This document shows positions 2,575 to 13,141 of a stretch of DNA of 58,493 nucleotides, in pieces (the stretch's first letter is position 1; each line of letters opens with the position of its first letter). The notes under the pieces were generated by a model, which saw nothing but the letters and a program-made list of their open reading frames with translations, was not told the origin of the DNA and ran no database searches. Origin of the DNA: Burkholderiaceae bacterium (lineage in GTDB: Bacteria > Pseudomonadota > Gammaproteobacteria > Burkholderiales > Burkholderiaceae_C); assembly GCA_022702125.1 (NCBI GenBank), contig JAKOND010000024.1, forward strand, positions 1-58,493. The letters are read 5' to 3'. Position numbers and translations under genes: made by a program.

Positions 2575-3777
2575 GTGCTGACATTGCAGACTACCCAAGA
2601 CCCTATCCGCAATGCGATTGCGATCTTTGACGCCATGCCGACCCTGCCGGCGATCCTCAAGCTCCTGCGCGACCAGACCGACATGCGGTTCATCGGCATC
2701 GCCCGGGTCACCCCGGAACGCTGGGTGACCTGCGCGGTCCTCGACGACGCAGGCCTGGGGCTGAAGATCGGCGACGAACTCGACGTCAACACCACCTTGT
2801 GCAGGGCGCAGCTGGACCAGCCGCACACCATCGTCTTCGACGATGCCCGCGCGCACCCGGTCTACGTCAATCACCCGGCACCGCGCCTCTACGGTTTCCG
2901 CAGCCATATCTCGGTACCGATCTGCCTGGCGGACGGCAGCTACTTCGGCTCGCTCTGCGGCCTCGACCCCGACCCGCGCTTGATCGCCGACACCAGGGGC
3001 GCCGGCATGATGGAAAACATGGCGAGTCTGATCGGGCGCCTCATCGACGAAGCCCTGTCGCATGTGGCAACCGAGCGAGCGCTGGTCGCCGAGCGGGAGG
3101 TCGGCGATTCGAGAGAACAATTCATCGCCGTCGTAGCGCACGACCTGCGGAATCCCTTGGGAACGATGCACACCGCCGCCGAGATTCTCATGCGCGCCGA
3201 AGATGAGAAGAGCAACCGCATGGGCGATCGACTCCGCAGGAGCGCGGCCCGCATGACCGGGCTCGTCAACGATCTGGTCGATTTTTCGCGAGGCCGGGCA
3301 GGCAGGGCGATGCCGGTGGAACTCGCGCGGTCCGATGCCCTGGCACCAGCGCTCCAGGAGATCGTGGAAGAGGTCCGGCACCTCCATCCCGATCGGGACC
3401 TGCGCAGCCAGCTGCGTTTCGACCGATCGGTGGTCTGCGATCAATCACGGCTGCAGCAACTGCTGTCGAATCTTCTGAGCAATGCCTTGTCCTATGGTGC
3501 TCCGGACAAGCCCGTGGTGGTCGAGGCTTTCGAAGACGAGGGCATCGCGTCCATCGTGGTGACGAACTGGGGTCCGCCGATTTCCCCGGAATGCCTCGAC
3601 CGGATGTTCGATGCCTACTGGAGCGCCGATGCAACGCGGGCGACTCCCAATATGGGGTTGGGATTGCACATTTGCCAGCTTATCGCCCGGGCCCACCACG
3701 GCATTCTGCGAGTGTCCGCCTGCGCCGAGAGGGGGACGCGTTTCACCATCGAATGGCCGTCGGATTGCCGGGCTTAG
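2575..3777 (+). CDS. GAF domain sensor histidine kinase
   Basis: A soluble sensor kinase of 400 aa. Residues about 20-160 form a GAF-type sensor domain. The dimerisation/phosphoacceptor box is AHDLRNPL with His189, followed by an N-box (NLLSNALSYG) and the glycine-rich box MGLGLHICQLIARAHHG, so the ATPase domain looks intact. No membrane segment and no receiver domain are visible. The GTG start at 2575 is supported by GGAG 8 nt upstream. No response regulator gene adjoins it, so its partner must lie elsewhere. GAF domains of this group bind small molecules or bilins or sense redox state; no chromophore cysteine can be assigned with confidence. Convergent with the GMC gene downstream. Confidence 0.9.
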   Translation: MLTLQTTQDPIRNAIAIFDAMPTLPAILKLLRDQTDMRFIGIARVTPERWVTCAVLDDAGLGLKIGDELDVNTTLCRAQLDQPHTIVFDDARAHPVYVNHPAPRLYGFRSHISVPICLADGSYFGSLCGLDPDPRLIADTRGAGMMENMASLIGRLIDEALSHVATERALVAEREVGDSREQFIAVVAHDLRNPLGTMHTAAEILMRAEDEKSNRMGDRLRRSAARMTGLVNDLVDFSRGRAGRAMPVELARSDALAPALQEIVEEVRHLHPDRDLRSQLRFDRSVVCDQSRLQQLLSNLLSNALSYGAPDKPVVVEAFEDEGIASIVVTNWGPPISPECLDRMFDAYWSADATRATPNMGLGLHICQLIARAHHGILRVSACAERGTRFTIEWPSDCRA

Positions 3778-3897: not shown

Positions 3898-5442
3898 TCA
3901 ACGGCCGAGGAAGCGATCGGCGGTGCGCAACGAGAGCGCCATGATCGTCAGCGCCGGGTTGGCGATCAACGCGCTCGGGAACACCGAGTTGTCGCAGATC
4001 CAGAGATTGTCGATGTCGAAGCTCCGGCCGTCCGGGTCCACCACCGCGGTGTCGCGGTCGATGCCCATGCGGCAGGCGCCGATGGTGTGCGCCGTGCGGG
4101 GCACCACGACCGTCTCGGTCGCGCCTGCGGCTTCCACGATCCGGCGCATCGTGTCGGTCGCGTGCCGGTCGATGGCCCGCTCGTTGTCGCCCGCGCTGAA
4201 CCGGACGACCGCCTTCGGCACCCCGAATTCGTCCGTTTCGTCCGAGAGTTCGAGCCGGTTGCCGTCCGACGGGAGGCATTCGGCATTGATGCCGACGCCG
4301 GCCATGAACCGGTAGCCGTCGAGCGCGTCCACCAGCGACCGGCCCCACAGGCCGGTGCCCCGGGCGAGGGAGGTGGCCAGCGTGCCGGGCATGGCGCCCA
4401 GGCTCTGGATCAGGTAGCCGCCCGCGAAGTCTGCGTCCCGTGGCCGCACCGTGTCCTCGGTGAGCAACGAGGAGGGATAGCCCCGGTATCCGCGCATTTC
4501 GCTGTCGAAGCGGCCCCAGACCTGCGTCGCGCCGTGCACGAGGAAGTTCCGGCCGACCTGTCCGCTCCCGTTGGCCAGGCCCGCATGGAGCAGGAGGCGC
4601 GGCGTCTCGACGCCGCCGGCGCAGACGAACAGGGCCGCGCAGCGCTGGCGGCGCTCCACGCCGCCCTGCCGGTACAGCACGCCGGTGACCCGGCCCGCCG
4701 CGTCCCGTTCGATCCCGTGGACCCGGCATTCGGGCCGGATCTCGGCGCCGTGGGCCACCGCCAGGGGCAGGTAGGTCGTGTCCATGCTGGCCTTGGAGCC
4801 GTTGCGGCACCCCTGGTGGCACGAGCCGCAGTTTACGCAGGCCTGGCGCAGTCCGCCGCCCTCCTGCCGCCAGTCCCGCGACACGAGGGCCGCGGGCGCG
4901 TCGGCGGTGCGGATCCCGAGGGCGTCGCAGCCCCGCGCCATCATGTCGGCCGAGGCGTTCCGCTTCGCGGGCGGCAGGGGATAGCGGCGCTCCGGATCCC
5001 AGGGATAGCGGGCCGGGCCGGACACGCCAATGAAGCGCTCGACCTTCTCGATGTAGCCGATGAGCTCGGCATGCGCGATCGGCCAGTCGTGACCCATGCC
5101 GGTCGAGGATTTCAGTTGCAGGTCACGCGGATCGGGACGCGGCGTGAAAGCGCCCCAGTGGAGGGTGGATCCCCCCACGCCGACGCCGCTGTTGTTGGGG
5201 CCGAAGGCCGTCGGTTCCGCGCCGCCGCTCAGGCGCTCCTCCATCCAGTTGATGTCGGTGCCCTCGGTCTCGTCGGGGGTGTGCTCGCCGGGCTCCCAGT
5301 TGCGGCCGGCTTCCAGCGCCACCACCCGCAGGCCCCGCGCCGCGAGGGTCGCGAGCAGCGGCGCTCCTCCGGCGCCCGTGCCGATCACCACCGCATCGAC
5401 GACCTCATTCTCGCCATGGCGGCGCATCGCATCGATATTCAT
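3898..5442 (-). CDS. GMC family FAD-dependent oxidoreductase with Cys4 motif
   Basis: A flavoprotein dehydrogenase of 514 aa, in the glucose-methanol-choline family that includes the catalytic subunits of gluconate and FAD-glucose dehydrogenases. It has the FAD-binding motif VVIGTGAGG (residues 18-26), a second FAD loop GVGVGGSTLHWG (about 86-97), and the C-terminal HTIGACRMG and ANPALTIMAL segments that carry the active-site His and Asn. Cysteines 202, 205, 208 and 212 form a C-x2-C-x2-C-x3-C cluster that could bind iron-sulphur. No signal peptide is seen. Its ATG overlaps the stop of the upstream hydrolase/subunit-3 fusion by 4 nt (ATGA), which implies coupled, near-equimolar synthesis. Substrate is probably a sugar, polyol or alcohol. 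Confidence 0.88.
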   Translation of the reverse strand: MNIDAMRRHGENEVVDAVVIGTGAGGAPLLATLAARGLRVVALEAGRNWEPGEHTPDETEGTDINWMEERLSGGAEPTAFGPNNSGVGVGGSTLHWGAFTPRPDPRDLQLKSSTGMGHDWPIAHAELIGYIEKVERFIGVSGPARYPWDPERRYPLPPAKRNASADMMARGCDALGIRTADAPAALVSRDWRQEGGGLRQACVNCGSCHQGCRNGSKASMDTTYLPLAVAHGAEIRPECRVHGIERDAAGRVTGVLYRQGGVERRQRCAALFVCAGGVETPRLLLHAGLANGSGQVGRNFLVHGATQVWGRFDSEMRGYRGYPSSLLTEDTVRPRDADFAGGYLIQSLGAMPGTLATSLARGTGLWGRSLVDALDGYRFMAGVGINAECLPSDGNRLELSDETDEFGVPKAVVRFSAGDNERAIDRHATDTMRRIVEAAGATETVVVPRTAHTIGACRMGIDRDTAVVDPDGRSFDIDNLWICDNSVFPSALIANPALTIMALSLRTADRFLGR

Positions 5443-6803
5443 CGCAGTACCTCCATCAGGGGTTCCCAGGCTTCTCTTTCATCGGCCGCCAGGCGCTCGA
5501 ATCCCTGCTTGCGGACGTCGTCCCCGCCGTTGGCGAAACCGTCGAAGCCGATCCGGGCCATGGTCGCGGGATGCGCCACCCAGAGGCGGACCGCGTCGGC
5601 GCGCAGGTCCTCGAACCAGCGCTGCATCTGCTGCGCGGAAAGGGTCTGCGCATCGGATTCGCCGCGTGCGATCCGCTCCAGCCGCGAGGCCTGCTCGTGC
5701 TCGGCGAGCGCTTCGAAACCCGCCAGACTGTCCAACGCTCCGGCGTACGCCTGCCGATCCGGGGGCAGGTCCTCGAAGCGCCAGCCGTCGCCCTTGCCGG
5801 CCGCGAGCTGCGCATCGATCCGCGCCGCCAGGTCGATCGCCGGGCCTGCCTGCGGCAGCACGCATCCGGCCACGGCGCGCAAAGTCCGCAGCTGCGCGGA
5901 CGACAGGGCCGCCGGCGCGTAGTCCGCGGGATCGGCCAGCACGCGGGCCGCCAGGGCGGCCCGCATCCGGCGGCTGACGCGCGCCGAAGCGATCAGCCGC
6001 GCGAACGCGCCGGGAACCGCGGGGCCGGTGCCGGCCGTCCGGTGCCAGAACCGCCCGATCGCATCGGCCACCGCCTGCGGCCGCTCCAACGGCAGCAGAT
6101 GGCCGGCGCCCGCTTCCACCGCGATCGTGGCGCGCGGATACACGACCGCGTTCGTGGCGCGCTGCCCCGCCTCGCCCAGGTCGCCGTCCTCGCCGCCGAC
6201 GACGATCGTCGCCGGCAGATCGAGCGTGCCGACCTCGCGGGACCAGTCTTCCAGGCTCCCGCGCTCCAGCCATGCCAGCCAGGCATGGCGGGACGCGCGC
6301 CGCAGATCGTCCAGCGCGAGGCGATCGTCCGCCGGCGCGAGCGGCCGGAGGCCGATGTTGTCGTCCACGAACGAGCGGGCGGCGGCTTCGTCGAGCGGGC
6401 CCGACGCGGCCCAACCGCGCATCTTCCGGCGCCGGTCCTCGTCCATCGGCTCGGGGGAGGGAGGGGACGCGGCGAGCAGCACCACGCCGGCGAGGCCGAA
6501 CAGGCCCGGCTCGCCGGCCAGCGTCCGCGACGCGATGATCGACGCGACCTTGCCGCCCATGCTATGGCCGACGAGGAGCCAGCGGGAGGGCGCTTTCGCC
6601 TTGATCGCCGCGACGGCATGATCGACCATCCCGGCGACGGTCAGGTCGGCGGCATCCCGCGCATCGCCGAAGCCGGGGAGGTCGATCGCGATGGCATCGA
6701 ATCCGGGATCGAAGCGGGCGATGACGCCGTCCCAGGCGCGCGCACTGCCGCCCAGCGCATGAAGCAGGAAAAGCGTGGGTCGGTCACTCGTCGTGGTTGT
6801 CAT
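5439..6803 (-). CDS. alpha/beta hydrolase fused to gluconate 2-dehydrogenase subunit 3-like domain
   Basis: A two-part protein of 454 aa. Residues 1-258 are an alpha/beta-hydrolase with oxyanion segment HALGGS, nucleophile elbow GHSMGG (Ser81), an acidic residue near 206 and catalytic His235 in GAGHLLPLE. Residues about 290-450 resemble the small subunit (Gluc_2DH_3 type) of membrane gluconate dehydrogenases: an Arg/Leu-rich helical start, a VLPQ segment, then a long helical region ending QGFERLAADEREAW. The start ATG at 6803 opens directly into the hydrolase fold; in-frame codons upstream do not look coding. There is no Tat signal, although the stand-alone small subunit usually carries one. 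Coupled by ATGA to the GMC gene. Assignment of the C-terminal domain is by pattern, not alignment. Confidence 0.8.
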   Translation of the reverse strand: MTTTTSDRPTLFLLHALGGSARAWDGVIARFDPGFDAIAIDLPGFGDARDAADLTVAGMVDHAVAAIKAKAPSRWLLVGHSMGGKVASIIASRTLAGEPGLFGLAGVVLLAASPPSPEPMDEDRRRKMRGWAASGPLDEAAARSFVDDNIGLRPLAPADDRLALDDLRRASRHAWLAWLERGSLEDWSREVGTLDLPATIVVGGEDGDLGEAGQRATNAVVYPRATIAVEAGAGHLLPLERPQAVADAIGRFWHRTAGTGPAVPGAFARLIASARVSRRMRAALAARVLADPADYAPAALSSAQLRTLRAVAGCVLPQAGPAIDLAARIDAQLAAGKGDGWRFEDLPPDRQAYAGALDSLAGFEALAEHEQASRLERIARGESDAQTLSAQQMQRWFEDLRADAVRLWVAHPATMARIGFDGFANGGDDVRKQGFERLAADEREAWEPLMEVLR

Positions 6804-6882: not shown

Positions 6883-8685
6883 TCAGCAGGCCGGCTGCTG
6901 GGACAGGACGTCGAGCGCCATGATGTGCGCGAGGTGGGACAGTCCCTGCGGCAGATTGCCGAGGAAGCTCCCGCTCCGGGCATCGATCATCTCGGTGAAC
7001 ACGCCGGTTCCCCGGGCCAGCCGGTCCTGCGCCGCCAGGAGCATCCGGGTGCCGTGCTCGCGCTGACCCAGCAGCATGCGCGCCTCGGCGATCCAGAAGG
7101 TGCAGGCGATGAAGCAGCCTTCCTCCCGGTCCGCACCGCTGTACCGGTAGTGGAAGGCCCCGCAGGAGAGCTCGCGCTCCAGGGCGTCGAGGGTGGACTC
7201 CAGCCGCGCGCGTCCGTCGAAGCGGAAGCGCACCGCCAAGGCGAGCGACGCATCCAGTCGCCCCGAGCCGGGATAGAACTCGTAGGCCTGCAGGGCATCG
7301 GACCAGCAATGCGCCTGGATCCAGTCGGCGATGCGGTCGCGTTCACGGCACCAGCGGTCGCGGCAGGTGGTCGGCAGCTGCCCGCCGTCCGCCAGTTCCA
7401 CGGCCCGGGCGAGGGCCTGCCAACAGCTGATCTTGGAGTTGGTGTAGTGCCGCGGCTCGGGCAGTTCCCAGATGCCGGAATCCTTCTGGCGCCAGTTGTC
7501 CGCGCACTGGTCGGCCAGCCGCGAAAGCACGATCGCGCTGGAGGAATCCAGGATGTTGCCGCATTCGACGAATCGCGAGGCGGTTTCGAAGATGTCCCCG
7601 TAGACGCCCTGCTGACGCTGGTCGGTCGCTGCGTTGCCCGTCCGCACCGGCGGGGAATGCCGGTATCCCGGTACATCCATCTCGGTGACGGACGGCACCA
7701 CGTCGCCTTCCAGGGTGAAGCAGACCAGCGGTCCGTGCCGTTGCAGCCGCTTCAGGAGCCAGGTGAAGGCCGCCTTGGCTTCCCCGTGGGCACCGGCGGC
7801 CAGGAATGCCTTGACGGTATAGCCCGCATCGCGAACCCAGGCGTAGCGGTAGTCGTAGTTCTTGTCGCCGCCGATGCGTTCGGGCAGCGAAGTGGTGGCC
7901 GCCGCGGCGATGGCGCCCGTCGGCGAATACACCAGCAGCTTCAGCGCCAGGGCGCTGCGCAGGAACTCCTTCCGGTAGAGGCCGTCGTACCGGACGCCTT
8001 GCGTCCAGCGGCGCCATTCCGCATCGGAGGTATCGATGCGTTCGTCGATGTGCTGCAGGTCCGGAACGACCAGCGGCTCGTCCTCGCCCGCCACGATCGC
8101 CGCCAGCTGCCGGTCGCCCGCCCGCACCGTGACACGGCCCCGTACCCCCTCGTCGCTGCGGCTCACATCGAATCCGCTGCTGTGCAGGAAGACGCCCAGG
8201 ACGCGGTCCGCATGGAACACCGAATGCTTGCCGACGCAGGACTGGTAGGGGCTGACGGTATCGGCGCGCCGTCCGAACAGCACGTGGAGTTCGAAGTCGA
8301 TCTCGCCTTCCAGGCCCTCGATGCGCCGCGCCAGCTCGGCCCAGGGCAGGCGTCCCGCCGTCCCGCTGTTGAGCGATTCCACCAGGCGCGCGCGCCCTTG
8401 GGGCGTGGTGAAGACCGTCTCGCTCACGTTGCTGTCGGGCAGGTACCGCTGGACCGCCTCGAAGGGGCCGCGCGGTGCCAGGGAGAAATGCCCTCCCGCC
8501 TCGGGATCGAGCAGGCGGCTGAACAGGGGCGGGGAGTCGAGGTTGGGCACGCACCACCAGTCGATGGAGCCGTCCGCGCCGGTGACGACGACCGATCTTC
8601 CGTCGCCGAGCGCGTTGTAGTGCTCCAGAGGCAGGACCCCGTCCTTGCGCTCCGGACGGACAGGGCGTTCTTCGTCGCCGATCAT
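6883..8685 (-). CDS. glycoside hydrolase family 15 protein
   Basis: A 600-aa GH15 enzyme of the bacterial glucoamylase/trehalase-like type. The N-terminal beta-rich domain opens with ALGDGRSVVVTGADGSIDWW, and the (alpha/alpha)6 catalytic barrel contains YDYRYAWVRDAGYTVKAF and the tail motif RHYTNSKISCWQAL. There is no signal peptide, so it should act in the cytoplasm on glucans, maltooligosaccharides or trehalose-type disaccharides. It starts 16 nt after the upstream SDR stop and precedes the hydrolase/subunit-3 fusion by 79 nt, so it is probably the second gene of a four-gene operon. Members often accompany stress or trehalose genes in proteobacteria; a stress role here is inference. Confidence 0.9.
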   Translation of the reverse strand: MIGDEERPVRPERKDGVLPLEHYNALGDGRSVVVTGADGSIDWWCVPNLDSPPLFSRLLDPEAGGHFSLAPRGPFEAVQRYLPDSNVSETVFTTPQGRARLVESLNSGTAGRLPWAELARRIEGLEGEIDFELHVLFGRRADTVSPYQSCVGKHSVFHADRVLGVFLHSSGFDVSRSDEGVRGRVTVRAGDRQLAAIVAGEDEPLVVPDLQHIDERIDTSDAEWRRWTQGVRYDGLYRKEFLRSALALKLLVYSPTGAIAAAATTSLPERIGGDKNYDYRYAWVRDAGYTVKAFLAAGAHGEAKAAFTWLLKRLQRHGPLVCFTLEGDVVPSVTEMDVPGYRHSPPVRTGNAATDQRQQGVYGDIFETASRFVECGNILDSSSAIVLSRLADQCADNWRQKDSGIWELPEPRHYTNSKISCWQALARAVELADGGQLPTTCRDRWCRERDRIADWIQAHCWSDALQAYEFYPGSGRLDASLALAVRFRFDGRARLESTLDALERELSCGAFHYRYSGADREEGCFIACTFWIAEARMLLGQREHGTRMLLAAQDRLARGTGVFTEMIDARSGSFLGNLPQGLSHLAHIMALDVLSQQPAC

Positions 8686-8701: not shown

Positions 8702-9577
8702 TCAGGCCACGCCGGCGCCGCCCGTGACGCCGAAGACTTCCCCGCTGATATAGCTGCCTTCCTGGCTGGCCAGCAACACGTAGACGGGAGCGATCTCGAC
8801 CGGCTGGCCGGGACGGCCGTACTGGCTTTCCTCGCCGAACTTGGCGACCTTCTCCGGCGGCTGGCCGCCGGAGGACTGGAGCGGCGTCCAGAACGGCCCG
8901 GGCGCCACGACGTTGGCGCGGATGCCCTTCTTCAGCAGTTGCTTGGCCAGCGCTTTGGTGTACGCGACGATGCCCGCCTTGGTCGTGGCGTAGTCGAGCA
9001 GGATGGCCGAAGGCTCGTAGGCCTGGATGGAGGCGGTCGTGATGACGGCGGCGCCTGCGGGCAGATGCGGCACGGCCGCCTGGGCGATCCAGTGCATCGC
9101 GTAGAGGTTGGTCTTCATGGTCCGGTCGAAGTCTTCCGACGTGACCTGGGAGATGTCTTCGCGGTTCTGCTGCCGCCCGGCGTTGATGACCAGGATGTCC
9201 AGGCCGCCCAATCCTTCCACGGTCTTCTCCACCAGGCTGCGGCACCACGCCTCGTCCGTGATGTCGCCCGGCAGCGCGATCGCCTTGCGGCCCTCGGCTT
9301 CGATCAGCGCGATCACCTCCTGCGCTTCGTCTTCTTCCGCCGGCAGGTAGGAGATGGCGACATCGGCGCCTTCGCGGGCATATGCGATGGCCGCGGCGCG
9401 GCCGATGCCGCTGTCGCCGCCGGTGACGAGTGCCTTGCGGCCCGCGAGCTTGCCGGATCCCCGGTAGCTGGTTTCTCCGTGATCGGGCACGGGATCCATT
9501 TTCGACGCCTTGCCCGGGACGGGTTGCGGCTGGAGCGGGAAGGGAGGCCGGGGATACTGGCTGCGCGGATCCTGCAT
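8702..9577 (-). CDS. SDR family oxidoreductase, YghA-like
   Basis: A 291-aa short-chain dehydrogenase of the YghA/general-stress type. These have an N-terminal extension before the Rossmann fold; here it is Pro/Gln-rich and ends MDPVPDHGETSYRGSGKL. Then come VTGGDSGIGRAAAIAYAREGAD (nucleotide site), INAGRQQ, a Ser in TTASIQAY and the YATTK (YxxxK) catalytic pair. I chose the ATG at 9577 by comparison with the family. A TTG at 9595, six residues upstream with GGAGAAG in front, is a real alternative. It appears to be the first gene of the minus-strand operon running to the GMC gene, and likely reduces aldehydes or ketones. Confidence 0.9.
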   Translation of the reverse strand: MQDPRSQYPRPPFPLQPQPVPGKASKMDPVPDHGETSYRGSGKLAGRKALVTGGDSGIGRAAAIAYAREGADVAISYLPAEEDEAQEVIALIEAEGRKAIALPGDITDEAWCRSLVEKTVEGLGGLDILVINAGRQQNREDISQVTSEDFDRTMKTNLYAMHWIAQAAVPHLPAGAAVITTASIQAYEPSAILLDYATTKAGIVAYTKALAKQLLKKGIRANVVAPGPFWTPLQSSGGQPPEKVAKFGEESQYGRPGQPVEIAPVYVLLASQEGSYISGEVFGVTGGAGVA

Positions 9578-10048
9578 GGAAAGTCGGTCGGACAAGGTCT
9601 TCTCCGGGAAATTTGAACGATCCGGCGAGACTAGGGTTTCCGCTGCTCCGTCGATGGCGGCCAAACGTCTGTCTGCGCGTAGGACTCGTCTGCCCGTTGC
9701 GATCGCCACCGAAGGCGCGGACCGCGTCGGCGCATGGTCTTTCTCCGTTCGTACGTCCCGACCTGCCTTTCGCAGGCCCGTGCCGTCAACCGTCCGAAAT
9801 TCGGCACCGAGACCATTCCGGTCGCCATCGGTAAATAATCGACCGTCGTTAATCGTTTCAAGGCCCGAATATGCGCAGCGCGCGGTTTGAAAAACTCCAT
9901 CGGCCATCCTCCTCGGCGCCTCATTGAAAATCGTGTCGCGGTCCCGCGATTTTGGCAAACAAAGTGCTTGGATTCGAATGCATTTCAGCACGGTTTCCGA
10001 CGATCGCTCCCATAGACTCGTGCTTCCCCATCCGCCGAGAACGATTCA
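9578..10048. other. divergent intergenic region
   Basis: About 470 nt between the minus-strand SDR operon and the plus-strand HAD gene, less GC-rich than its flanks (for example AT-rich around 9830-9900). It must hold two divergent promoters. No open frame here has a plausible start and ribosome site. A TAGACT box at 10013-10018 is a possible -10 for the HAD gene, with no good -35. Confidence 0.4.
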
Positions 10049-10714
10049 ATGATCTTCAAGCCCAAATTCATCAGTTTCGATTGTTACGGCACACTCATCG
10101 ATTTTGAAATGGGTCCGACAGCCGCAAAGATTTTCCAGGACCGCGTCCCGTCCAAGAAAATGCAGGCGTTTCTCCAGAGCTTCAAGGCTCAACGCCTGAA
10201 TGAAGTGCTGGGCGCCTGGAAACCCTTCTTCGACGTGGTCGAGAACTCCATACGGCTCGCTTGCGAACAGCACGGCATCGAATTCCGTCCCGAAGACGCC
10301 CGAGCGTTGTACGCGGCGATTCCCACTTGGCAACCGCATCCGGGCGTCGTGGAAGTGCTCGCGGCCATCGCGCCGCATTTCCCGCTGGTCATCCTGTCGA
10401 ATTCGATGGTCGATCTGATTCCGCACAGCGTCAGGCATCTCCGGGCCCCTTTCCATGCGGTCTATACCGCGGAAGAAGCCCAGGCCTACAAGCCGCGCAT
10501 GGAAGCCTTCACGCACATGTTCGACCAGCTCGGCTGCGGTCCGGAAGACATGATGCATTGCTCCTCGAGCTTCCGGTACGACCTGATGACCGCGTCCGAT
10601 CTGGGATTCATGGCCAGGACCTTCATCGACCGGGGCCACGAACCATCATCAGAGCAGTACGGCGTCAGCCGGATCACCGACATCCGTCAGCTGCCAGGCC
10701 TGCTGGGCCTGTGA
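10049..10714 (+). CDS. HAD-superfamily hydrolase, haloacid dehalogenase type II
   Basis: A 221-aa cytoplasmic hydrolase of the L-2-haloacid-dehalogenase branch of the HAD superfamily. It has the nucleophile motif FDCYGTL (Asp11), motif II LSNS, motif III lysine in AYKPR and the acidic end motif SSSFRYD. Members hydrolyse 2-haloacids or phosphoesters through a covalent Asp intermediate, and family resemblance alone does not say which. It is the first gene of a plus-strand group with an APH-type kinase, a PLP enzyme and an Lrp regulator. In that setting phosphate chemistry is at least as likely as dehalogenation. A similar 221-aa paralog lies at 23587-24252. Confidence 0.85.
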   Translation: MIFKPKFISFDCYGTLIDFEMGPTAAKIFQDRVPSKKMQAFLQSFKAQRLNEVLGAWKPFFDVVENSIRLACEQHGIEFRPEDARALYAAIPTWQPHPGVVEVLAAIAPHFPLVILSNSMVDLIPHSVRHLRAPFHAVYTAEEAQAYKPRMEAFTHMFDQLGCGPEDMMHCSSSFRYDLMTASDLGFMARTFIDRGHEPSSEQYGVSRITDIRQLPGLLGL

Positions 10715-10743
10715 AGTCCACGCCCCTTCAGACGGAGCCGGCG

Positions 10744-11796
10744 ATGAGGATTCCACAGCATGGGGACACTGCGGCGCTCAGCACCGATGTCCCGAATTTC
10801 GATCCCGACCGCGTCGCGGCATTGGTGAGCCAGGTCTACGGCATCGATGCGCGCATCGAACCCCTCGCGGGGGAACGGGACCAGAACTGCTGCGTGCGCA
10901 CGGCCGACGGGATCCGCCGCGTCTTCAAGATCAGCAACCCGTCGGAACCCGCCGCGCTGGTGGACTTCCAGATCGCGGCCCTGGATCACATCGCCGCGCG
11001 CGCGCCCGACCTGGCGGTGCAACGGGTCGTGAAAACCCTGGACGGGGAACAGAGCGCATCCGTAGAACTCGATGACGGCCGATTCACGAAAATCCGAATG
11101 CTGACCTACCTGGACGGCATCCAGATCAAGCACACGCCGCGCACCGCCGCGCAGCGCCGGGCCATGGGCCGCGGACTGGCGCGGCTGAACCTGGCGATGC
11201 AGGACTTCTCGCATCCTGCGGCCTCGCACGACCTACTCTGGAATGCGTCCGCCGCGCATCGGCTCACCGAGCAACTCGCGGCGCTGTCGGGGGACGCCCG
11301 CTATCCGCTGGCGTGCGCCTTCATGGAAAACTTCGTCGAGAACGTCCAGCCGTACCTCCCGGCCGTGCGGGCGCAGGTCATCCACAACGACTACCACCTC
11401 TATAACGTGCTGGTCGATCCGGAGAAACAATCCGTGATCACCGGCATTATCGATTTCGGCGACATGCTGCACGCGCCATTGGTCGGCGAAGTCGCCACGG
11501 CGGCCGCATTCCATATGGCCGACAGTGACGATCCATTCGAAGGCCCCGCGCAATTCATCGGCGCCTATCACGCATTGCTTCCGCTGGACGACAGGGAATT
11601 GGATATCGTGGCCGACCTGATGGCGACACGGCACTTGATTACCGCGCTCATTTCCGAATGGCGCGCCGCGCGGTATCCGGAAAATCGGGCTTATATCATG
11701 CGGCACAACCCCGCCGCATGGGAGGCGCTCGCATACATGCACCGGCTGCCTCGAGAAGAAATACGAGACCGTCTATTAATCAATGTGAAAAAGTGA
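10744..11796 (+). CDS. APH-family kinase, amino-alcohol or hydroxylysine kinase-like
   Basis: A 350-aa protein of the choline/aminoglycoside phosphotransferase fold. The catalytic loop is VIHNDYHLYNVLV (HxDxxxxN) and the metal-binding loop is GIIDFGDM. The ATG at 10744 lies 29 nt after the HAD stop. The open frame extends upstream, but that part is antiparallel noise over the HAD gene. It sits 7 nt before a class-III PLP enzyme of the phospho-lyase type. Such kinase/phospho-lyase pairs act in ethanolamine or 5-hydroxylysine breakdown: the kinase phosphorylates the alcohol and the PLP enzyme eliminates phosphate and ammonia. That substrate assignment is inference from context. Confidence 0.78.
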   Translation: MRIPQHGDTAALSTDVPNFDPDRVAALVSQVYGIDARIEPLAGERDQNCCVRTADGIRRVFKISNPSEPAALVDFQIAALDHIAARAPDLAVQRVVKTLDGEQSASVELDDGRFTKIRMLTYLDGIQIKHTPRTAAQRRAMGRGLARLNLAMQDFSHPAASHDLLWNASAAHRLTEQLAALSGDARYPLACAFMENFVENVQPYLPAVRAQVIHNDYHLYNVLVDPEKQSVITGIIDFGDMLHAPLVGEVATAAAFHMADSDDPFEGPAQFIGAYHALLPLDDRELDIVADLMATRHLITALISEWRAARYPENRAYIMRHNPAAWEALAYMHRLPREEIRDRLLINVKK

Positions 11797-11803
11797 GCCG
11801 ACC

Positions 11804-13141
11804 GTGAAAACTACCGAAGACTTCAACATGGTGAACGCGTATATTCCCGGGCGCGCGACACTGGAGCCGGGAACCGAAGCGATGATCGGGCGCCGCAATG
11901 CCTTGCTGGGCCCCGCCTACCGCCTGATGTACGAGCATCCCCTGCACATCGTGCGGGGCGAAGGCGCTTGGTTGATCGATCCGCAGGGACGCCGCTACCT
12001 CGACGCCTACAACAACGTCACTTCGCTGGGGCATTGCCATCCGACGGTCACGGAAGCGATCTGCCGGCAGGTGCGGACGCTCGCGACCAACACCCGCTAC
12101 CTCCACGACTCGATCCTCGAACTGGCCGAGCGGCTGCTGGCGAGCGTGCCCGGCACCGACCTGGCCCACCTCATGCTGACCTGCACCGGCAGCGAAGCGA
12201 ACGACCTCGCCTACCGCATCGCCCAGGTGCGGACCGGCGGAACCGGCGTGATCGTCACCGACACGGCCTATCACGGCATCACCGACGCAGTCTCCAAGTT
12301 CTCGCCTTCGCTCGGCGCGAGCGTGGACCTGGGAGCGCATGTGCGCATGGTTCCCGCACCCCGCCAGTACCACGCCGGAGGCGCGGACCTTTCGGAGCGC
12401 TTCACCCGCGACGTGGAAGCCGCCATCGCCGACCTGAAGCGCCACGGCATCCGTCCGGCGGCGCTCATCGTGGATTCGGTGTTCACCAGCGACGGCATCC
12501 TGCCGAACGCGCCTGGCTTCCTGAAGGGCGCGGTCGAGGCGATGCAGCGCGCAGGAGGCGTCTTCATCGCCGACGAAGTGCAGCCGGGCTTCGGCCGGAC
12601 CGGGGAGCACCTGTGGGGCTTCCAGCGCCACGGCGTGCGTCCCGACATCGTGACGATGGGCAAGCCGATGGGCAACGGGCAACCCATCGCCGGGCTGCTG
12701 GCCACCGCCGACGTGCTGGCGGAATTCGGCAGGAACTCGCGCTACTTCAATACTTTCGCGGGTAATACCGTGTCCTGCGCCGCCGCCCTGGCCGTCCTGG
12801 ACGCGATCGAGCAGGAGCGCCTGGTCGCGAACGCGGCTGCCGTCGGCCGCGTGCTCTACGACGGCATCGCCGCCCTCGCGCGACGCCACGAGGCCATCGG
12901 CGACGTCCGTGGCGTGGGTCTCTTCGTCGGGGTGGAACTGGTGTCCGACCGGCACGCCAGGACCCCGAACCGGGCGCTCACCAGCCTGGTGGTCAACAAG
13001 ATGCGTGAGAAGGGCGTGCTGCTGAGCGCCTGCGCGACGGGCCACAACGTCCTGAAGATCCGTCCTCCGCTGGTGCTCTCGGCCCAGCAAGCCGCGATGG
13101 TGATCGCGGCGTTGGACGAATCGCTTTCGGAAGCGCGCTGA
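11804..13141 (+). CDS. class-III PLP enzyme, phospho-lyase/AGXT2-like
   Basis: A 445-aa fold-type-I PLP enzyme. The cofactor-binding acid is in FIADEVQPGFGRTG and the Schiff-base lysine in VTMGKPMGNGQP. The MGKPMGNG context is typical of the AGXT2L branch, which holds ethanolamine-phosphate and 5-phosphohydroxylysine phospho-lyases, rather than of ordinary omega-transaminases. The GTG at 11804, 7 nt after the kinase stop, is used here; an ATG at 11828 is an alternative. Expected chemistry is elimination of phosphate and ammonia from an O-phospho-amino-alcohol to give an aldehyde. A plain aminotransferase function cannot be excluded. Confidence 0.83.
   Translation: MKTTEDFNMVNAYIPGRATLEPGTEAMIGRRNALLGPAYRLMYEHPLHIVRGEGAWLIDPQGRRYLDAYNNVTSLGHCHPTVTEAICRQVRTLATNTRYLHDSILELAERLLASVPGTDLAHLMLTCTGSEANDLAYRIAQVRTGGTGVIVTDTAYHGITDAVSKFSPSLGASVDLGAHVRMVPAPRQYHAGGADLSERFTRDVEAAIADLKRHGIRPAALIVDSVFTSDGILPNAPGFLKGAVEAMQRAGGVFIADEVQPGFGRTGEHLWGFQRHGVRPDIVTMGKPMGNGQPIAGLLATADVLAEFGRNSRYFNTFAGNTVSCAAALAVLDAIEQERLVANAAAVGRVLYDGIAALARRHEAIGDVRGVGLFVGVELVSDRHARTPNRALTSLVVNKMREKGVLLSACATGHNVLKIRPPLVLSAQQAAMVIAALDESLSEAR

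What the first reader, a model, noticed from the sequence alone, without database searches (positions are those of the whole stretch)
5439..6803. Alpha/beta hydrolase fused to a gluconate-dehydrogenase subunit-3-like domain, coupled to a GMC enzyme
One 454-aa chain has a complete Ser81/His235 hydrolase followed by about 160 residues like the small subunit that normally carries the Tat signal for GMC dehydrogenases. Here the signal is missing and a hydrolase occupies its place, while the GMC gene follows with an ATGA overlap. This suggests a cytoplasmic complex that hydrolyses an ester or lactone and oxidises the product in one assembly, for example a sugar lactone or glycosyl ester; the GH15 gene is in the same operon.
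Basis: partly seen in the sequence, partly recalled or inferred. Interest (0 to 1): 0.7.

Follow-up and report, generated by a model that had tools for sequence, protein, structure and literature searches.

The report
Hydrolase fused to GMC small subunit
A bacterial gene joins a serine hydrolase to the small partner subunit of a sugar-oxidising flavin enzyme encoded next to it; the fusion is real and recurs in distant bacteria, and probably makes one soluble two-step enzyme complex whose substrate is still unknown.

Summary
The gene at 5439-6803 (minus strand, 454 aa) has an intact alpha/beta hydrolase (S81/D206/H235) and a C-terminal Gluconate_2-dh3 domain (PF13618 over cut-off; profile-profile E 5.6e-26 to stand-alone cytoplasmic-type small subunits, 1.7e-7 to Tat-exported ones). 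It is no frameshift: I found the same fusion in 15 other loci (Comamonadaceae, Sphingomonas, Brevundimonas, Methylobacterium, Microlunatus, Curtobacterium). In all 15 junctions checked, the window's included, an NTGA overlap leads into a GMC gene 62-87% identical to the window's. Deinococcus encodes the three parts as separate genes in one operon, which links them independently of the fusion. The GMC is nearest to fructose and FAD-glucose dehydrogenases, with the His/Asn pair. Its clade carries a fourth cysteine (CxxCxxCxxxC against CxxxxxCxxxC), which suggests a changed Fe-S cluster. GH15 linkage is recurrent but varies in order and strand. Best model: a cytoplasmic complex in which the GMC enzyme oxidises a sugar to a lactone and the tethered hydrolase opens it. 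Architecture is shown; complex formation, reaction order and substrate are inferred.

The parts
5439..6803 (-). Fusion protein, 454 aa: alpha/beta hydrolase + Gluconate_2-dh3 domain
   Evidence: AlphaFold2 model mean pLDDT 88, pTM 0.88
6036..6803 (-). Hydrolase domain (about residues 1-256); S81, D206, H235; clade signature SPPSPEPMDEDRR at residues 113-125
   Evidence: same signature type SPPxPEPM in the separate Deinococcus hydrolases
5439..5957 (-). Gluconate_2-dh3 (small/gamma-subunit-like) domain, about residues 283-454; the conserved C-terminal tail (421-446) has low confidence in the monomer model
3898..5442 (-). GMC oxidoreductase, 514 aa; H95 (aligned with the FAD-linked His of FAD-GDH), C202/C205/C208/C212, catalytic pair H452/N495, all invariant in the nine-sequence alignment
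   Evidence: residue roles by comparison with published BcGDH (PMC6719666)
5439..5442 (-). ATGA stop/start overlap between fusion and GMC genes
   Evidence: 15 of 15 junctions checked are NTGA
6883..8685 (-). GH15 glycoside hydrolase (trehalase-like), 79 bp upstream on the same strand; recurrently linked
8702..9595 (-). SDR oxidoreductase (start inferred from relatives; the open frame runs to 9991), 16 bp upstream of GH15; same SDR linked in several fused loci

Best explanation
The gene encodes a bifunctional subunit. Its C-terminal Gluconate_2-dh3 domain binds the co-translated GMC dehydrogenase beside the Fe-S cluster, as the gamma subunit does in FAD-glucose dehydrogenase, and so tethers a serine hydrolase to that enzyme in the cytoplasm. 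Most likely the GMC enzyme oxidises a hydroxyl of a free sugar released in the cell by a linked glycosidase (GH15 here, GH1 in Deinococcus) to a lactone, passes electrons through FAD and the Fe-S cluster to an unidentified acceptor, and the tethered hydrolase opens the lactone to the acid, making the step irreversible. Shown by sequence: architecture, active-site residues, recurrence, fixed pairing. Inferred: complex formation (likely), localisation (likely), lactone formation and order of steps (moderate), substrate identity (weak).
For: Domain calls; profile-profile match to stand-alone small subunits, 99.7%, E 5.6e-26, and to Tat-type gamma subunits, 93.8%, E 1.7e-7. Triad invariant in 18/18. 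Same fusion in 15 other loci, NTGA overlap in 15/15 junctions checked. The fused-type GMC forms one clade (99/98) with Deinococcus as its nearest neighbours (100/100). Deinococcus operons encode gamma, GMC and an SPPxPEPM hydrolase separately; in D. psychrotolerans the three genes overlap directly. The GMC profile's best solved relatives are fructose dehydrogenase 7w2j and FAD-glucose dehydrogenase 6a2u/8hdd; FAD-GDH works with a small subunit that packs next to its Fe-S cluster and oxidises the first hydroxyl of glucose (PMC6719666). Among named families the hydrolase scores best against 3-oxoadipate enol-lactonase models, though below their cut-offs. Glycosidases are repeatedly linked.
Against: No complex was modelled (only single chains were run). 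Foldseek of the isolated C-terminal domain found nothing in PDB, nor did a sequence profile, so its relation to the solved gamma subunit rests on Pfam and profile-profile comparison. Enol-lactonase models are matched far below cut-off, so 'lactonase' is only a lean. Stand-alone SPPxPEPM hydrolases exist with no GMC gene in the stretch read around them (Nocardioides, Roseomonas, Microvirga), so the hydrolase can probably act without it. No electron acceptor gene is evident near the locus.
Confidence: 0.45

Rival explanations
1. Hydrolyse first, oxidise second: the hydrolase frees an alcohol or sugar from an ester or lactone and passes it to the GMC enzyme.
For: Intact triad and cap; GMC enzymes oxidise alcohols; the fusion would serve channelling in either order.
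Against: The closest solved GMC relatives act on free sugars (PMC6719666), giving lactones or ketones; linked glycosidases already provide free sugars.
Confidence: 0.25
2. The GMC enzyme oxidises an intact glycoside or disaccharide at a secondary hydroxyl (glucoside-3-dehydrogenase-like), Gfo/Idh/MocA or SDR partners and GH enzymes process the keto-sugar, and the hydrolase clears an ester or lactone side product.
For: Gfo/Idh/MocA and GH1 genes lie inside two Deinococcus operons; an SDR gene follows the GMC gene directly in Sphingomonas.
Against: Those genes are absent from the D. psychrotolerans three-gene operon and from most fused loci; the role for a serine hydrolase is unclear.
Confidence: 0.15
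3. The hydrolase acts on an unrelated substrate; the fusion merely stabilises the small subunit or co-regulates a general stress locus (Dps, SDR and GH15 neighbours).
For: Dps lies divergently upstream in Sphingomonas loci; GMC-free hydrolases survive in Roseomonas, Nocardioides and Microvirga.
Against: Hydrolase, gamma and GMC co-occur in the separate Deinococcus operons; triad conserved throughout.
Confidence: 0.12
4. Artefact: frameshift or assembly join of two genes.
For: None found.
Against: Same open fusion in 15 other loci, including complete plasmids.
Confidence: 0.01

Closest known systems
FAD-dependent glucose dehydrogenase alpha/gamma pair of Burkholderia cepacia (PDB 6A2U, 8GRJ)
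   Same: GMC catalytic subunit with Fe-S cysteines, His/Asn pair, and a small partner subunit
   Different: gamma carries a Tat signal and no hydrolase, and a cytochrome c subunit takes the electrons; here there is no Tat signal, no cytochrome gene seen nearby, a fused hydrolase and a fourth cysteine
Fructose dehydrogenase FdhL/FdhS (PDB 7W2J)
   Same: best-scoring solved relative of the GMC protein; C-x5-C-x3-C motif
   Different: exported membrane-bound heterotrimer (from general knowledge); no hydrolase
Uncharacterised YihY-like / gluconate 2-dehydrogenase subunit 3 / GMC operons (L045, L046, L060-L063, L097, L098)
   Same: small subunit without Tat signal followed by GMC, often near GH15
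   Different: no hydrolase; GMC only about 40-43% identical; three cysteines (CxxxxxCxxxC)
Deinococcus gamma / GMC / alpha-beta hydrolase operons (L093-L095)
   Same: all three components, same hydrolase signature SPPxPEPM, GMC about 51% identical
   Different: three separate genes; GMC has three cysteines; GH1 and Gfo/Idh/MocA added in two of three species
3-oxoadipate enol-lactonase PcaD / PcaDC
   Same: best-scoring named models for the hydrolase domain
   Different: far below the curated cut-offs; different fusion partner; no protocatechuate genes adjacent in the annotated loci

Membership tests
Gluconate_2-dh3 (PF13618) small-subunit family | Profile match over gathering score | tested here: met
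   28.7 bits whole protein, 31.7 for the domain alone, cut-off 23.4; four fused relatives 27.9-49.6 bits
Gluconate_2-dh3 (PF13618) small-subunit family | Encoded next to a GMC or FAD dehydrogenase | tested here: met
   GMC overlaps at 3898-5442; same at 15 of 15 junctions checked
Tat hitchhiker gamma subunit | N-terminal twin-arginine signal | tested here: not met
   N-terminus MTTTTSDRPTLF; nearest unfused relatives also lack it; canonical ones have an invariant RR
FAD-GDH/FDH catalytic subunit | GMC fold, Fe-S cysteines C-x5-C-x3-C, His/Asn pair, FAD-linking His | tested here: met
   C202/C208/C212 match the Cys212/218/222 spacing (PMC6719666); H452/N495 and H95 invariant; by sequence only
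FAD-GDH/FDH complex | Multi-heme cytochrome c subunit | tested here: not met
   none seen among annotated or Pfam-scanned neighbours of fused loci
Alpha/beta hydrolase (PF12697/PF00561) | Fold and Ser-Asp-His triad | tested here: met
3-oxoadipate enol-lactonase (PcaD) | Score over TIGR02427 cut-off | tested here: not met
   55.8 bits against 255.85
FAD-GDH-like enzyme | Glucose oxidation at C1 | not testable with these tools
   needs assay

The most novel reading that the evidence does not exclude
A cytoplasmic oxidase-lactonase assembly in which the Tat-hitchhiker subunit family has been turned into a scaffold that tethers a hydrolase to a GMC enzyme, whose ancestral 3Fe-4S site has become a four-cysteine, probably 4Fe-4S, site feeding a new cytoplasmic electron acceptor.
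Probability: 0.35. Interest if true: 0.65.

Novelty: new variant of a known kind. Interest (0 to 1): 0.45.

Why it matters
FAD-GDH-type enzymes are used in glucose sensors, and their small subunit is described as a Tat hitchhiker and Fe-S protector. A lineage whose small subunits carry no export signal, and in one branch carry a second catalytic domain, suggests that the subunit's primary role need not be export. It also offers a soluble enzyme with a different cysteine set and a built-in hydrolase. The fused, split and hydrolase-free versions give natural comparisons for testing what the tethering does.

Tried and rejected
Frameshift/assembly artefact: rejected by 15 relatives. Hydrolase replaced a Tat signal: rejected, since the nearest unfused subunits have none. 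EcfG-type stress promoters (GGAAC-N15-19-[CG]GTT) upstream of the gene: no consistent site (the one just upstream in Curtobacterium is a palindrome in an actinobacterium). PDB fold search with the C-terminal domain model and PDB profile searches with the small-subunit alignments gave nothing. Literature searches for this fusion or for GMC plus gluconate 2-dehydrogenase subunit 3 found no paper; the library lacks most subscription journals. A fixed GH15-fusion-GMC operon: rejected, as order and strand vary between loci.

Full report
OBSERVATION. The minus-strand gene 5439-6803 encodes 454 residues. Pfam finds Abhydrolase_6 (E 3.7e-20, residues 11-248) and Gluconate_2-dh3 (28.7 bits, cut-off 23.4, residues 303-415); the C-terminal part alone scores 31.7 bits. 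The AlphaFold2 model is confident over both domains (mean pLDDT 88, pTM 0.88), except for the N-terminus and the last 30 residues or so. The hydrolase domain matches many alpha/beta hydrolase structures.

An alignment of nine such domains matches stand-alone cytoplasmic-type small subunits with probability 99.7% and E 5.6e-26, and Tat-exported gamma subunits with 93.8% and E 1.7e-7. Those stand-alone proteins score 69.5-97.8 bits with PF13618. The solved-structure searches by sequence or fold did not pick up the small subunit. That fits the report that gamma had no structural neighbours in a DALI search (PMC6719666), but leaves a direct structural check open.

THE FUSION IS REAL AND RECURRENT. 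A scan of one genome per species found it in Xenophilus, Xylophilus, Microlunatus, Curtobacterium, Sphingomonas and Brevundimonas; whole-genome searches added three loci elsewhere in the phylum, and the plasmid collection four more, including Methylobacterium bullatum and a leaf Comamonadaceae. Counting the window there are 16 loci. In 15 of 15 junctions checked the fusion's stop codon overlaps the GMC start as NTGA. It is rare: in the window's own family, of 151 genomes searched only the window and one other had it.

ACTIVE SITES. S81, D206 and H235 are invariant in 16 fused and two stand-alone relatives; D208 is not, so D206 is the likely acid. A signature SPPSPEPMDEDRR follows the strand before the cap. 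In the nine-sequence GMC alignment C202, C205, C208, C212, H95, H452 and N495 are invariant. Published FAD-GDH binds its 3Fe-4S cluster with Cys212, Cys218 and Cys222, a C-x5-C-x3-C spacing, and uses a His/Asn pair (PMC6719666); C202, C208 and C212 fit that spacing. C205 is extra: every fused-clade GMC checked has CxxCGxCHQGC, while the unfused ones have CxYRGxCxxGC and Deinococcus CxNRGFCQAGC. A switch to a four-cysteine cluster is an inference from this.

THE UNFUSED VERSION. In Deinococcus psychrotolerans a small subunit, a GMC and an alpha/beta hydrolase are three consecutive overlapping genes; D. gobiensis and D. actinosclerus have the same three with Gfo/Idh/MocA and GH1 genes between GMC and hydrolase. 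These hydrolases carry the SPPxPEPM signature and the small subunits match the domain profile with 80-91 bits; with Pfam's own PF13618 model they stay just below the cut-off. The GMC proteins are the nearest neighbours of the fused clade (100/100 support; the tree tool warns that long branches meet there). The link between the three activities therefore does not depend on the fusion. In the hydrolase tree the GMC-free hydrolases of Roseomonas and Nocardioides sit inside the fused group, which suggests secondary loss; the Microvirga hydrolase was not placed in the tree.

The nearest stand-alone small subunits (YihY-like/gamma/GMC operons and Deinococcus) have no Tat signal, so the hydrolase was added to a type that already lacked one. 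GH15 linkage is recurrent: a window-type GH15 is near the fusion in 7 of 16 loci, and a 59% identical one lies beside the Roseomonas hydrolase, but order and strand vary. It was not seen in the two actinobacterial and several other loci.

MECHANISM. Shown: domains, residues, pairing, recurrence. Likely: a cytoplasmic heterodimer, since both proteins lack signals and the domain is homologous to a subunit that binds GMC beside the Fe-S cluster. The conserved but, in the monomer model, unstructured tail (421-446) would then fold onto the GMC, as the gamma C-terminal loop does in FAD-GDH (PMC6719666). Moderate: the GMC makes a sugar lactone and the hydrolase opens it. FAD-GDH oxidises the first hydroxyl of glucose, glycosidases are linked, and the hydrolase's best named models are enol-lactonases, though far below their cut-offs. 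The opposite order remains possible. The electron acceptor is unknown.

NOVELTY. I found no paper describing this fusion, in a library that lacks most subscription journals. It is a new variant of the FAD-GDH/FDH-type alpha-gamma pair, not a new kind of system.

Noticed in passing
L093-L095 (Deinococcus plasmids): Separate gamma, GMC and hydrolase genes in one operon; in D. actinosclerus the GMC is annotated as 'ribonuclease BN', and the gamma subunits of two species as hypothetical.
   Followed up: yes
L045:3043-4029, L046:4892-5908 and relatives in L060-L063: A conserved protein (YihY/BrkB-like by eye, no Pfam hit at E 1e-4 for the one tested) precedes the Tat-less small subunit and GMC in many unfused loci, often with GH15 and a TPP enzyme nearby.
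   Followed up: partly
L066:6167-6766, L068:6232-6801, L008:5099-5743: A Dps/ferritin-like gene lies divergently upstream of the fusion in several Sphingomonas loci, which hints at stress regulation; no EcfG-type promoter found.
   Followed up: partly
L010 about 5760-5952: A TatA-like short ORF (by eye) lies just upstream of the stand-alone hydrolase in Nocardioides alkalitolerans.
   Followed up: no
window 10049-13141 (+): HAD-like gene (by eye), APH-family kinase and class-III aminotransferase in a row: resembles a hydroxylysine or ethanolamine-phosphate type kinase/phospho-lyase set (from memory, untested).
   Followed up: no
window 2575-3777 (+): GAF-domain histidine kinase convergent with the GMC gene; a sensor kinase is also near the fusion in L003 and L058.
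   Followed up: no
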